DNA of 64,000 bases from Nitrospirales bacterium. GTDB taxonomy: Bacteria; Nitrospirota; Nitrospiria; Nitrospirales; UBA8639. The stretch covers positions 1-64,000 of the forward strand of contig JAAXIB010000079.1 in the NCBI GenBank assembly GCA_012270585.1. The letters run 5' to 3'. Under the pieces are notes generated by a model, which did not search any database, was not told the origin of the DNA, and saw only the letters and a list, made by a program, of their open reading frames with translations. This document shows, piece by piece, positions 26,614-33,116 of this stretch. Made by a program: the position numbers and the translations under genes. The stretch's first letter is position 1. Every line of letters begins with the position of its first letter.

Positions 26614-27807
26614 ATGATTAAATATGAAACGCCAAGAAACTGGTTTCAATTTGATAAGGATAGCCGGGACCTGACAGGGATCTATGTGGAAGCGAAGGCC
26701 GCGATCCTTTCCCTGCAAACAGTCCCCTATCAACGTCGTTGGGTGGAGGCACTACAAGACGTTGAATTAAAGCGCGAAGTCGCCGGGACCTCACGGATTG
26801 AAGGGGCCGAATTTACAGAGCAGGAATTCGAGCTGGCCTTCCAGGAAAACCCTGCCCAACTGCTCACGCGCTCCCAGAGACAGGCCCATGCCGTCGTCCA
26901 GACCTATCGCTGGATTGCCGCACTTCCCCAGGACCGACCCATCAACGCAGATCTGATTTCTCATATTCACCGGACTATTGTGACGGGTGCGGACGATGAT
27001 CATTGTCCGCCCGGGCAATTAAGGAAGGAAAATCAGAACGTTAACTTTGGGATGCCCAGGCATCGAGGCGCCGAAGGAGGTGCAGAGTGCGTATCAGCCT
27101 TTCGACAATTCAGCGAGGCCATTCAAAGAGAGTATCAGGACCAGGACCCGATCATTCAAGCATTAGCGGCCCACTATCATCTGGCGGCTATGCACCCCTT
27201 CCTTGATGGAAACGGCCGGACCGCCCGAGCCCTGGAAGCCCTTATGCTCCAACGGGCCGGGCTTCGTGACACCTGCTTCATTGCGATGTCAAACTACTAT
27301 TACGATGAGAAGAATGCGTATCTTGCCGCCCTAGCAGAAGTCCGCCAGTCCGGCCATGATCTGACGGCTTTCCTCATTTTCGGGCTCAAGGGCATTGCCC
27401 TCCAAAGCAAGCGAGTCCTTGCCCAAATTCAGCGTCACATCTCCAAGGTACTCTATCGGGACCTTATGTACGAACTCTTTGGCAGACTGAAATCAAAGCG
27501 GAAACGGTTCATTGCGCAACGGCAGTTGAAGATTCTCGACTTGTTACTGAACGCCGATTCCATGGAATTTGACCTGTTGAGAAAAATGACCGAGAGTACC
27601 TACAGCAAGCTAAAAAACCCCGTGGGAGGCTTGGTTCGCGACCTTCTTAACCTGGAAGCTTTGAACGCGATCGCGATCAAACAAATCGGAGAAAATCGAT
27701 ATGAAGTTACCGTCAGACCGGAATGGCCGACACGTCTTACCGAGACCGACTTCTTTGCAAAAATAAAGCAATACCCCAAGGCAAAAACGCATTCGTTGCT
27801 GCGCTAA
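26614..27807 (+). CDS. Fic-domain AMPylating enzyme, class II
   Basis: A 397-residue Fic protein. The catalytic motif HPFLDGNGRTAR (194-205) is complete, and the N-terminal inhibitory helix has TSRIEG (59-64), matching (S/T)xxxE(G/N), so it is self-inhibited (class II). About 170 residues C-terminal to the Fic fold form a winged-helix-like part (RKMTESTYSKLKNPVGGLVR). Fic enzymes usually transfer AMP from ATP to a target protein hydroxyl. The target is unknown. It is embedded in AT-rich DNA, suggesting transfer, and its 3' end overlaps the next frame. Confidence 0.93.
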   Translation: MIKYETPRNWFQFDKDSRDLTGIYVEAKAAILSLQTVPYQRRWVEALQDVELKREVAGTSRIEGAEFTEQEFELAFQENPAQLLTRSQRQAHAVVQTYRWIAALPQDRPINADLISHIHRTIVTGADDDHCPPGQLRKENQNVNFGMPRHRGAEGGAECVSAFRQFSEAIQREYQDQDPIIQALAAHYHLAAMHPFLDGNGRTARALEALMLQRAGLRDTCFIAMSNYYYDEKNAYLAALAEVRQSGHDLTAFLIFGLKGIALQSKRVLAQIQRHISKVLYRDLMYELFGRLKSKRKRFIAQRQLKILDLLLNADSMEFDLLRKMTESTYSKLKNPVGGLVRDLLNLEALNAIAIKQIGENRYEVTVRPEWPTRLTETDFFAKIKQYPKAKTHSLLR

Positions 27808-30189: not shown

Positions 30190-30228
30190 GTGGCGCGCCC
30201 GGAGGGAGTCGAACCCCCAACCCTCAGA
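30190..30228 (-). repeat. partial tRNA-Arg, 3' part (island boundary)
   Basis: These 39 bp are identical to 32208-32246, i.e. the 3' part of the intact tRNA-Arg: CCA end, acceptor strand, T arm, variable loop and the 3' strand of the anticodon stem. Identity stops exactly at the anticodon loop. A copy of a tRNA 3' end at a distance from the intact gene is the usual footprint of tRNA-targeted integration. Confidence 0.9.
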
Positions 30229-30301: not shown

Positions 30302-30733
30302 TTACGCCAAATGTCTAACAATAAGCCTCGATGCTTGCGCTAACAATAAGGCTTTCGCTCTTCGATGTTCGCTGCTCTCTTCATTTGGCCAATTGACAAT
30401 ATTGGCGTGACGAGGATGGGGCGAAGGATGTGGCACTATACGTAAATCCTGGCTGTACACCGTTTGTGCGAAGAGATCACCTCTTGCAAGGACCAAACGA
30501 TTTTTCTCAGGATTTGCGACATAGTGATCGCCAACTGACCAGATTTCAGTTTCTTCACAATTTGTGGTCCGGTAAACGGAAGTTTGTCGCTCCGGCTGTT
30601 CCGGTTTAGGGTTGGTTGGCAGAAACGCATCGACCTTTATTTCCCTCTTGTCAGACTTGATGTATCTCTTATTCAAAATATACCGGGTAATCCGTTCATC
30701 AGGACTGACATCAGAAGGCAAAAGCTCGTTCAT
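30302..30733 (-). CDS. unknown protein, third gene of the TIGR04255 operon
   Basis: A 143-residue protein with no family I recognise. It opens ELLPSDVSPDERITRYILNK followed by RYIKSDKREIKVDAFLP, and ends with a hydrophilic His/Arg-rich part containing EESSEHRRAKALLLAQASRL. No signal peptide or membrane segment. It begins 1 nt after the stop of the preceding gene, so translation is coupled. Last gene before the left tRNA remnant, inside the island. Confidence 0.7.
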   Translation of the reverse strand: MNELLPSDVSPDERITRYILNKRYIKSDKREIKVDAFLPTNPKPEQPERQTSVYRTTNCEETEIWSVGDHYVANPEKNRLVLARGDLFAQTVYSQDLRIVPHPSPHPRHANIVNWPNEESSEHRRAKALLLAQASRLIVRHLA

Positions 30734-30734
30734 T

Positions 30735-31229
30735 TCAAAAATACTCAGATAATATTTCAGTTATGTGAGGTGGAAGTTTTTCTCGATATTCTTCCAAAGA
30801 AACTCTGCCATAATGCACATGTTGGGGACCCAACGCTGCCGCATAGATCAAGACTCTGTTTTCCGCAGTGACCGACAAAATTCTATTCGGACGCGAACGC
30901 CATTCAAAAGAGAGCCCTCCTTCCGGAGAGGGTACAAGATCAGGCTGAGGTGCCCAGACCGGAATCAGTTCGATAAAATTCCTTGCATGTAAAACAGAAT
31001 CTTCGGAAAGTGGCGCGGCATCGTAACCATCCCAACCAGGCTCCGAACATTCTATATAAATTTCAAAAGCCTCGCTCACAAGCAACCGTTTCCAACCACC
31101 TGATGTGATCGGTTGGGTGGCATGAAGAGACACTTCTTTCTCCGTTTCCCTCAACTGGTTTGAATCCTCACCGACACCTTTTTCTAGGGTGTTAGAAGCA
31201 GGTGCTATTTCTAGCGTTGCAGAATTCAT
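30735..31229 (-). CDS. unknown protein, second gene of the TIGR04255 operon
   Basis: A 164-residue soluble protein with no family I can name. The first 45 residues look disordered. The rest has a compact conserved-looking block: CSEPGWDGYDAAPLSEDSVL, then LVPSPEGGLSFEWRSRPNRI, and YGRVSLEEYREKLPPHITEI. Start codon follows directly on the stop of the TIGR04255 gene and its own stop is 1 nt from the next start. The 'WDGYDAxP' motif recalls small proteins found beside TIGR04255 genes, but this is from memory and uncertain. Confidence 0.7.
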   Translation of the reverse strand: MNSATLEIAPASNTLEKGVGEDSNQLRETEKEVSLHATQPITSGGWKRLLVSEAFEIYIECSEPGWDGYDAAPLSEDSVLHARNFIELIPVWAPQPDLVPSPEGGLSFEWRSRPNRILSVTAENRVLIYAAALGPQHVHYGRVSLEEYREKLPPHITEILSEYF

Positions 31230-32006
31230 TCAAATTTCCTCCAGTCCAAAAAGTTTTTTGGCTTTTGGATGTAAACTTGCCTCAAAGACAGTATTCTTCA
31301 ACTCACGGAAGCGATCAAGGGTACTCCACAAATCAAAGCTGTCTAGTAGCATACGTTGTTCTCTTATGACATCAATATCAAGGGTGAAAGTTGGTTGACT
31401 TTGGTACGGTTGAGGTGCCGGAGCTTGGGTAATAATAATAGTGGCTTCGGGGTCAGGATTAACAACTTCTATACGACTAAAAAAATGTTTTAAAGCCTGA
31501 GGAAGTCCTTCGGGAATTCTCGGTGGTTCAGTAAAATAATCAAGGAGTTTTATTTCACCTGCAGGAATCACTATCTGATTGATGTACCGAACTGCAAAAC
31601 GTTTGAGCTCCACCGTATTCGTTACCATCACGTATTTATCCCATGCCCTTCGAGCTTCATCCCGTAGAACCTGCCATCCAGGCCATGCTGCCATAGGGTC
31701 TGGCTTTAGGAGATTGAAAGTAAAACCATCAAGTCTCATTTGAACCCATCTGTTCTCATCTGAGGACTGGAAGATATAGCCAAGAAGTTGTTTATTTTGT
31801 TCCGATGTCATGTCAGCGTTGGAAAACTTCATAGAAATCTTGCCTCGATACTGAGTTCTTATCTCAGGGTAGAGGGATCCGAACTCAGTGCCGCATTCTT
31901 TCAGTTTTGGAAGCAACTCCTCGGAAAGCTCATCTATTTGAATGTCAATGAGGGCTTCTCGAACTGGGGGGCGGGAATAAGAAGGGTCTGTTGGCTGTGA
32001 TGCCAT
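31230..32006 (-). CDS. TIGR04255 family protein
   Basis: A 258-residue protein opening PTDPSYSRPPVREALIDIQI, the hallmark N-terminus of the TIGR04255 family (xPxVxEAxxxIxF), followed by RFAVRYINQIVIPAGEIKLL in the middle and a C-terminal region ending HPKAKKLFGLEEI. The family is widespread but patchy and of unknown function. First gene of a gapless three-gene operon lying between the intact tRNA-Arg and its 3' remnant. No transposase or integrase accompanies it. Confidence 0.85.
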   Translation of the reverse strand: MASQPTDPSYSRPPVREALIDIQIDELSEELLPKLKECGTEFGSLYPEIRTQYRGKISMKFSNADMTSEQNKQLLGYIFQSSDENRWVQMRLDGFTFNLLKPDPMAAWPGWQVLRDEARRAWDKYVMVTNTVELKRFAVRYINQIVIPAGEIKLLDYFTEPPRIPEGLPQALKHFFSRIEVVNPDPEATIIITQAPAPQPYQSQPTFTLDIDVIREQRMLLDSFDLWSTLDRFRELKNTVFEASLHPKAKKLFGLEEI

Positions 32007-32208: not shown

Positions 32209-32284
32209 TGGCGCGCCCGGAGGGAGTCGAACCCCCAACCCTCAGATCCGAAGTCTGATGCTCTATCCATTGAGCTACGGGCGC
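32209..32284 (-). tRNA. tRNA-Arg (UCG anticodon)
   Basis: Read leftward the 76-nt gene folds into a full cloverleaf: acceptor GCGCCCG/CGGGCGC, D arm with AGCTCAATGGATAGAGC, anticodon stem TCAGA/TCTGA with loop CTTCGGA (anticodon TCG, decoding CGA), T arm with GGTTCGACTCC, discriminator G and encoded CCA. Its 5' end is only 15 nt from the higA stop, so it has no room for its own promoter and must be read from upstream. Remnants of its two halves lie on either side. Confidence 0.95.
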
Positions 32285-32299
32285 GTCCGACTGTCTTTT

Positions 32300-32617
32300 T
32301 CAAGCAATCGCCTCCAAGCCCTTCTTCTGAACCAGCGTTAAAAGTTTGAGCGAGGCACCGGCAGGATGCTTTTCTCCTCGCTCCCACTGGCTGATAAGGC
32401 CTGTCGAAACATTCAGATGCAGAGCGAACACGGCCTGGCTCACGCGCTCGCGTTCCCGGAGCGCACGAATTTCATCCGGCTGCATCGGGCACACCGGCGT
32501 GAGGCAAAGTTCATCGAACTTGCGGAGTGTCCGCTTGTCCATGAGACCCGCTTCATGAAGGTCGGACGCGGTCTCATGGATCACCCCGAGAGCATCACTA
32601 CGATACGTCTTGCTCAT
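32300..32617 (-). CDS. higA: HigA-type antitoxin
   Basis: A 105-residue protein with a helix-turn-helix (PDEIRALRERERVSQAVFAL followed by HLNVSTGLISQWERGEKHPA), the Xre-type domain of HigA/NadS antitoxins; the N-terminal part would contact the toxin. It overlaps the end of the toxin gene by 20 nt, with toxin first as normal for higBA. The stop codon lies 15 nt before the tRNA-Arg gene on the same strand. Confidence 0.9.
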   Translation of the reverse strand: MSKTYRSDALGVIHETASDLHEAGLMDKRTLRKFDELCLTPVCPMQPDEIRALRERERVSQAVFALHLNVSTGLISQWERGEKHPAGASLKLLTLVQKKGLEAIA

Positions 32618-32984
32618 GACATTTCGCCTCTACTATTGCACCGCTCTTCAACGCCCTGGAAAGAGCGGCCTTATCATAGCCAAGCATCACATCCGCCAGT
32701 TCCTTAAAGCCCTTCAATTCATCCTTCCGAATGTTGCTGCGCGCACCCTTTGAAAAGCCGTAAACGAAGAAAGCCTTGTCCTCGTAACGGAACAGCACAA
32801 TCGCTCTGAACCCGCCGGACCTGCCCTCGTTCGGGCGGGCGATTCGCTGTTTGATTACTCCGCCCCCAAGGTCGGCGTCAATCAATCCTTTCTCGGCGTT
32901 GGCAATCGCATCGCACAAGACCGTGTCTTCGATCCCGTTTTGCTGGGCAAAGCGTACAAACCATTTGTTCTTGAAAATCCTCAA
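32598..32984 (-). CDS. higB: HigB-type RelE-superfamily toxin
   Basis: A 128-residue protein of the HigB/DUF1044-like RelE superfamily: FKNKWFVRFAQQNGIEDTVL, then GGGVIKQRIARPNEGRSGGF and RAIVLFRYEDKAFFVYGFSK followed by GARSNI. Basic residues in these strands fit mRNA cleavage at the ribosome. It starts about 28 bp after a likely promoter at 33019-33047 and forms an operon with higA, located between the intact tRNA-Arg and its 5' remnant. Confidence 0.9.
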   Translation of the reverse strand: MRIFKNKWFVRFAQQNGIEDTVLCDAIANAEKGLIDADLGGGVIKQRIARPNEGRSGGFRAIVLFRYEDKAFFVYGFSKGARSNIRKDELKGFKELADVMLGYDKAALSRALKSGAIVEAKCHEQDVS

Positions 32985-33018
32985 ATTTTTGGTTTTCTCG
33001 GCTTTGGATCATATTTCT

Positions 33019-33047
33019 ATTATATAGCACCTTGTGTGATAGTTTAA
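33019..33047 (-). promoter_or_regulatory. probable promoter of higBA (and perhaps tRNA-Arg)
   Basis: Reading leftward, TTAAAC (33047-33042) and a perfect TATAAT (33024-33019) are 17 bp apart in locally AT-rich DNA, 35 bp before the higB start. No other promoter is evident between here and the intact tRNA-Arg, so this one may also drive the tRNA. Confidence 0.5.
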
Positions 33048-33060
33048 AGAAAAATCTAAA

Positions 33061-33116
33061 TCCGAAGTCTGATGCTCTATCCATTGAGCTACGAGCGCGT
33101 CCGACCGTCTTTTTCA
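33061..33116 (-). repeat. partial tRNA-Arg, 5' part plus flank (island boundary)
   Basis: These 56 bp match 32247-32302 with two mismatches. They cover the anticodon loop, 5' anticodon strand, D arm and acceptor 5' strand (33061-33098) plus 18 bp of leader. One mismatch (G to A) falls in the acceptor stem. The copy begins at exactly the base where the 3' remnant at 30228 ends in the intact gene. TTGACA (33138-33133) further upstream may be part of the original tRNA promoter, though no clear -10 follows. Confidence 0.88.

What the first reader, a model, noticed from the sequence alone, without database searches (positions are those of the whole stretch)
30302..32006. Gapless three-gene operon (TIGR04255 plus two unknowns) as sole cargo of an integrase-free mini-island
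The three genes have spacings of 0 and 1 nt, which implies fixed stoichiometry, and they alone fill the DNA between the intact tRNA and its 3' remnant. About 2 kb of tRNA-flanked DNA with no integrase is like satellite or defence-cassette cargo. TIGR04255 proteins are widespread, sporadic and unexplained. This is my best candidate for an undescribed system, perhaps phage defence.
Basis: partly seen in the sequence, partly recalled or inferred. Interest (0 to 1): 0.7.

Follow-up and report, generated by a model that had tools for sequence, protein, structure and literature searches.

The report
Three-gene mobile cassette, candidate phage defence
A bacterium from a genus of small-genome Nitrospira relatives carries a compact three-gene cassette inserted next to a transfer-RNA gene; the same trio recurs, always in the same order, in distant bacteria and in phages, and its last two genes also sit inside DNA-restriction gene clusters, so it is probably a little-known anti-phage system, although nobody has tested it.

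Summary
Three abutting genes (spacings 0 and 1 nt) lie between an intact tRNA-Arg(TCG) and an exact 38-nt copy of its 3' half, with no integrase. A congeneric genome has the empty site.

The refutation test (no co-occurrence) failed. In 25 assessable strong hits to gene 3 in Nitrospirota and Gammaproteobacteria samples, all 25 have gene 2 directly upstream and 24 have TIGR04255-gene2-gene3 in order. Two IMG/VR contigs carry the trio; one has clear phage structural genes.

It is not wholly undescribed. Genes 2 and 3 are remote relatives of PADLOC's unvalidated candidate PDC-M32, which sits between hsdM and hsdS. The gene 2-3 pair also lies in or beside type I restriction clusters in two further lineages.

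Best reading: a horizontally moving three-component defence module. Genes 2-3 are the constant part and TIGR04255 an exchangeable recognition part. Defence is inferred; the biochemistry is unknown. Gene 3 has a confident predicted fold with only weak ADP-ribosyltransferase-like matches. Most copies lie among ordinary genes, not in dense defence islands.

The parts
31230..32006 (-). g1: TIGR04255 family protein, 258 aa, first gene of the operon
   Evidence: NCBIfam TIGR04255 1.1e-28, 100.7 bits; conserved first gene in all complete trios
30735..31229 (-). g2: 164 aa, WDGYxAxP...PDGxxxEW family; start abuts g1 stop (TGA|ATG)
   Evidence: PADLOC PDC-M32A C-terminal region 7.4e-4 here, 11 of 13 family members match, best 1.3e-6; alignments A2, A5
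30302..30733 (-). g3: 143 aa, AFxP...SVxR...RHANIVxWP family; 1 nt after g2
   Evidence: PADLOC PDC-M32B 0.0046 here, best 1.8e-4 in family; AlphaFold pLDDT 93.4
32209..32284 (-). intact tRNA-Arg (TCG), the insertion target
   Evidence: ARAGORN
30191..30228 (-). exact copy of tRNA positions 39-76 (3' remnant), junction next to rmuC
33060..33116 (-). 5' half of tRNA-Arg (positions 1-39) plus about 18 nt of its upstream sequence: second remnant
32598..32984 (-). RelE-family toxin (128 aa), between the 5' remnant and the intact tRNA
   Evidence: Pfam PF06296 3.6e-47
32300..32617 (-). HTH antitoxin-like partner of RelE (105 aa)
   Evidence: Pfam HTH_31/HTH_3

Best explanation
The operon is a small horizontally moving three-component module, most likely an anti-phage defence system. 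Shown: g1-g2-g3 is a conserved, co-inherited, selected unit; in this genus it was inserted into the 3' half of tRNA-Arg(TCG); relatives ride in phage genomes; and the g2-g3 pair is the constant core that also joins type I restriction-modification operons, where TIGR04255 is replaced by restriction subunits or by a different N-terminal domain fused to g2. Inferred: g1 is the exchangeable recognition or scaffold subunit; g2 binds and controls g3; g3 is the effector, activated on infection to arrest the cell or block the phage (abortive-infection type). Whether g3 is an enzyme is open; an ADP-ribosyltransferase-like activity is only a weak structural lead. The overall defence role is put at about 0.5 and the specific division of labour at about 0.25.
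For: Co-occurrence: 24 of 25 assessable strong g3 hits in 369 Gammaproteobacteria and 296 Nitrospirota genomes carry g1-g2-g3 in order, and all 25 carry g2. The exception (G1065, L150) has g2-g3 in an HsdM-GIY-YIG-HsdS-g2-g3-RadC cluster. Distances of the three proteins correlate across 28 operons: Mantel r 0.73-0.84, 0 of 2000 permutations. Sporadic: 22 of 296 and 6 of 369 genomes at E<=0.001. Phage carriage: IMG/VR L136 has DNA-ejection, tail-spike and structural proteins around the trio, and L041 also carries it. Restriction link: relatives M32A/M32B sit beside hsdM and hsdS in four genomes; L150 and L040 have g2-g3 downstream of hsdM-hsdS; a divergent TIGR04255 trio follows an hsdM-like ORF in L098. 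Other defence neighbours: PLD/NgoFVII and SIR2_2 (L149), DNA methylase plus DUF4062 plus UvrD (L160), DUF1828 plus UvrD (L061); DUF4062 is an experimentally supported anti-phage NADase family (PMC13174449). Relatives are a PADLOC candidate defence system.
Against: No functional test exists. Most of the 25 operons whose neighbours were scanned lie between ordinary genes, and PADLOC hits among 128 neighbours are few. No control set of neighbours was scored, so enrichment is not demonstrated statistically. Of other PADLOC candidates, two tested in a native host (PDC-M63AB, PDC-S04) showed no defence (PMC12409345). No catalytic motif was identified; Foldseek hits for g3 and g1 are all above E 0.001. 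A solitary TIGR04255 gene without a recognisable partner recurs in family-mates, so the family also has other contexts.
Confidence: 0.5

Rival explanations
1. Toxin-antitoxin or addiction module: g3 is a toxin, g2 its antitoxin and g1 a third regulatory or chaperone component; its benefit is to stabilise the mobile element that carries it rather than to stop phages.
For: Small coupled genes on mobile DNA, next to a RelE/HTH pair in the same compound island; carried by phages; g3 is broken while g1 and g2 are intact in L064.
Against: Shared use of g2-g3 inside type I restriction operons in several lineages is not typical of plain addiction modules; no toxin family is recognised.
Confidence: 0.2
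2. Restriction accessory or counter-restriction module: g2-g3 modulates type I restriction (specificity, timing, self-protection), and with TIGR04255 it does the same in trans, or protects phage DNA.
For: hsdM-M32A-M32B-hsdS order; g2-g3 after hsdS in L150; L040 downstream of hsdM-hsdS; phage carriage.
Against: The great majority of TIGR04255 trios have no restriction genes next to them; whether this genome has a type I system was not searched.
Confidence: 0.15
3. Ordinary metabolic or regulatory operon that happens to move horizontally.
For: Most copies sit among housekeeping genes; purifying selection.
Against: Sporadic presence/absence even within the genus with an empty site in G001, phage carriage, restriction association, faster protein evolution than rmuC.
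Confidence: 0.12

Closest known systems
PADLOC candidate PDC-M32 (M32A + M32B), PADLOC-DB 2.0.0
   Same: g2 is homologous to the C-terminal part of M32A and g3 to M32B (hhalign 67% and 94% probability; member hits); same gene order
   Different: M32A has an unrelated N-terminal region and no TIGR04255 gene; M32 is embedded between hsdM and hsdS; here g2 stands alone and TIGR04255 precedes it, at a tRNA
TIGR04255 (sporadTIGR04255) family
   Same: g1 is a clear member, well over the curated cut-off
   Different: no function is attached to the family, and no paper in the searched library mentions it, so its recurring partner pair appears undescribed
tRNA-targeted genomic islands (tyrosine-integrase type)
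   Same: intact tRNA, 3' direct repeat, empty site in a relative
   Different: no integrase, about 2 kb between tRNA and remnant, an extra 5' tRNA half upstream
Type I restriction-modification with embedded genes
   Same: g2-g3 relatives lie inside or beside such operons
   Different: no restriction genes at this locus

Membership tests
TIGR04255 | score over curated cut-off along the whole model | tested here: met
   100.7 bits against 30, positions 2-252 of 252
PDC-M32 (PADLOC) | M32A full-length match | tested here: not met
   only P0002 residues 64-122 match M32A 270-330 of 375, E 7.4e-4; g1 does not match
PDC-M32 (PADLOC) | M32B match | tested here: inconclusive
   E 0.0046 for P0003, best 1.8e-4 in family, profile-profile probability 93.6%: homologous but remote
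PDC-M32 (PADLOC) | embedded between hsdM and hsdS | tested here: not met
   neighbours are tRNA-Arg and rmuC; the feature holds for M32 loci fetched here
Validated anti-phage defence system | reduces phage infection when expressed | not testable with these tools
   no experiment; no paper mentions TIGR04255
Type II toxin-antitoxin | recognised toxin or antitoxin domain | tested here: not met
   no significant Pfam or NCBIfam match for g2 and g3
Type II toxin-antitoxin | toxicity of one protein neutralised by the other | not testable with these tools
   needs expression
tRNA-integrated genomic island | direct repeat of the tRNA 3' end and empty site in a relative | tested here: met
   38-nt exact repeat; G001 has tRNA directly followed by the rmuC leader
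tRNA-integrated genomic island | own integrase | tested here: not met
   none in the island; two PF00589 genes on other contigs only
ADP-ribosyltransferase fold (for g3) | significant structural match | tested here: not met
   Tpt1/KptA and AvrPphF ORF2 lead the PDB list but at E 0.3-0.4, TM 0.3-0.4; Tpt1-type again among weak viral hits

The most novel reading that the evidence does not exclude
TIGR04255-g2-g3 is an undescribed modular immune system found in several bacterial phyla and in phages: g2-g3 is a general effector/control pair that is plugged into different recognition parts (TIGR04255 proteins, type I restriction complexes, other fused domains), which would give TIGR04255 its first function.
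Probability: 0.3. Interest if true: 0.75.

Novelty: new variant of a known kind. Interest (0 to 1): 0.5.

Why it matters
TIGR04255 is a widespread, sporadic family without a function, and PDC-M32 is an untested entry in a defence catalogue. Showing that they share a gene pair joins two unknowns, gives complete trios that can be cloned and tested, and suggests that an accessory pair found in type I restriction operons also works outside them.

Tried and rejected
Plasmid and phage record collections: no relatives of g2 or g3 by tblastn, two weak TIGR04255 hits only. No sequence relative in the PDB. The g1-g2 read-through fold (TGA read as W) modelled g1 well but g2 at pLDDT below 50, because g2 rows could not be placed correctly in one alignment with g1; no inference is drawn for g2 or for a g1-g2 interface. 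An inverted repeat upstream of g1 is present in G000 and G010 but not in G006 and G008, so it was dropped as an operator. Chance co-location was rejected. M32A as a TIGR04255-g2 fusion was considered and rejected: its N-terminal part does not match TIGR04255. L056/L063 (G282) proved to be a g3 fragment beside a gene that looks like HipA and was left out of the counts.

Full report
WHAT IS THERE. The window lies in a 2.5 Mb genome (G000, contig C29). Closest named relatives of the operon are Nitrospira-labelled and Nitrospirales MAGs. On the minus strand three genes abut: g1 31230-32006 (TIGR04255), g2 30735-31229, g3 30302-30733; g1 and g2 meet as TGA|ATG and g2 and g3 are 1 nt apart. An intact tRNA-Arg(TCG) is at 32209-32284, and its positions 39-76 are repeated exactly at 30191-30228 just before rmuC. 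The two half-copies break at the same tRNA position (39, beside the anticodon), so the original gene looks split, with RelE/HTH, a complete tRNA and the operon between the halves. Whether that was one event or two is not decided.

INSERTION HISTORY. All 14 genomes of the genus keep the flanking 146-aa gene. G010, G006 and G008 have the operon after the same tRNA with an eroded 3' remnant at the same junction; G001 has the empty site, tRNA directly followed by the rmuC leader; G005, G012 and G009 have other DNA after the tRNA; the rest could not be assessed because contigs end or the tRNA was not found. RelE/HTH at this site is seen only in G000. g2-g3 of G010 and G006 differ at dS about 0.04 while rmuC differs at 0.42, so that stretch was exchanged recently; the genes are otherwise under purifying selection. 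The genome's only two PF00589 recombinases are on other contigs.

CO-OCCURRENCE. A g3 profile finds 6 of 369 Gammaproteobacteria and 22 of 296 Nitrospirota genomes. Among strong hits with enough upstream sequence (5 and 20), all 25 have g2 immediately upstream and 24 have g1-g2-g3 in order, usually with 4-nt overlaps between g1 and g2. Two IMG/VR contigs carry the trio (L041, L136); L136 also encodes DNA-ejection, tail-spike and virion structural proteins. Protein distances of the three genes correlate across 28 operons (Mantel r 0.73-0.84, 0 of 2000 permutations); shared species history contributes to this. Other TIGR04255 subfamilies, including a second locus in this genome (C85), are followed by two genes of similar size and motif layout. 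Profile comparison supports homology of g2 across subtypes A, C and D and of g3 between C and D; g3 A-D is weak and subtype B is not supported. A further locus in this genome (C68, L162) has g2-like and g3-like genes after an unrelated gene and a sub-threshold Abi_alpha match. Not all TIGR04255 genes have such partners.

RESTRICTION LINK. PADLOC PDC-M32A matches g2 through its C-terminal part only, and PDC-M32B matches g3. Fetched M32 loci show hsdM-M32A-M32B-hsdS, in line with the 'guilt-by-embedding' origin of PDC entries described in PMC12988326. The closer g2-g3 family also lies after hsdS in L150 and downstream of hsdM-hsdS in L040, and a divergent TIGR04255 trio follows an hsdM-like ORF in L098. 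The constant element is therefore g2-g3, and what precedes it varies. PDC-M32 has been reported in a Sinorhizobium prophage by annotation only (PMC12429752).

OTHER CONTEXT. Some trios neighbour other defence-type genes (L149, L160, L061, L066); DUF4062, near the L160 trio, is an anti-phage NADase family (PMC13174449). Most do not: neighbours are mainly housekeeping genes. No background set was scored, so no enrichment is claimed.

STRUCTURE. g3 folds confidently (pLDDT 93.4, pTM 0.87). The first three PDB matches are Tpt1, Tpt1 and AvrPphF ORF2, all of the ADP-ribosyltransferase fold by general knowledge, but at E 0.3-0.4 and TM 0.3-0.4; Tpt1-type proteins recur among weak viral matches. This is a lead, not an assignment. 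g1 is modelled well over most of its length without a convincing match; g2 was not modelled.

READING. Shown: a selected, co-inherited, mobile trio with a constant g2-g3 core shared with type I restriction operons. Inferred: defence, with TIGR04255 as recognition part, g2 as control and g3 as effector. PADLOC candidates as a class are mostly unvalidated, and two tested in one study showed no defence (PMC12409345; PMC12988326), so the defence reading is held at about even odds.

Noticed in passing
window 32300-33116: RelE/HTH toxin-antitoxin pair between a 5' half of tRNA-Arg (with promoter-proximal sequence) and the intact tRNA; seen only in G000. An insertion that duplicates the 5' half of a tRNA is unusual.
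   Followed up: partly
L081 (G000:C85) and L162 (G000:C68): Two more related loci in the same genome: a divergent TIGR04255 trio, and a variant with g2-like and g3-like genes after an unrelated 234-aa gene and a weak Abi_alpha match.
   Followed up: partly
L193 and L194 (G010, G006): g2-g3 nearly identical (dS about 0.04) although rmuC differs at dS 0.42: recent exchange of the g2-g3 stretch between species.
   Followed up: partly
L064 5067-8299: A trio with a broken g3 next to tRNA-Lys and an ORF that looks like a P4-type integrase (read by eye, not scanned individually).
   Followed up: no
L087, L088 and similar loci of genus g9: A shorter TIGR04255 gene without recognisable partners recurs across that genus; possibly a domesticated lineage.
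   Followed up: no
L084, L086: TIGR04255 followed by a different conserved pair (about 122-133 aa and 213-223 aa).
   Followed up: no
window 26614-27807: A 397-aa ORF that looks like a Fic protein (read by eye) a few kb from the operon; two SoFic-type hits also occur among neighbours of other trios.
   Followed up: no
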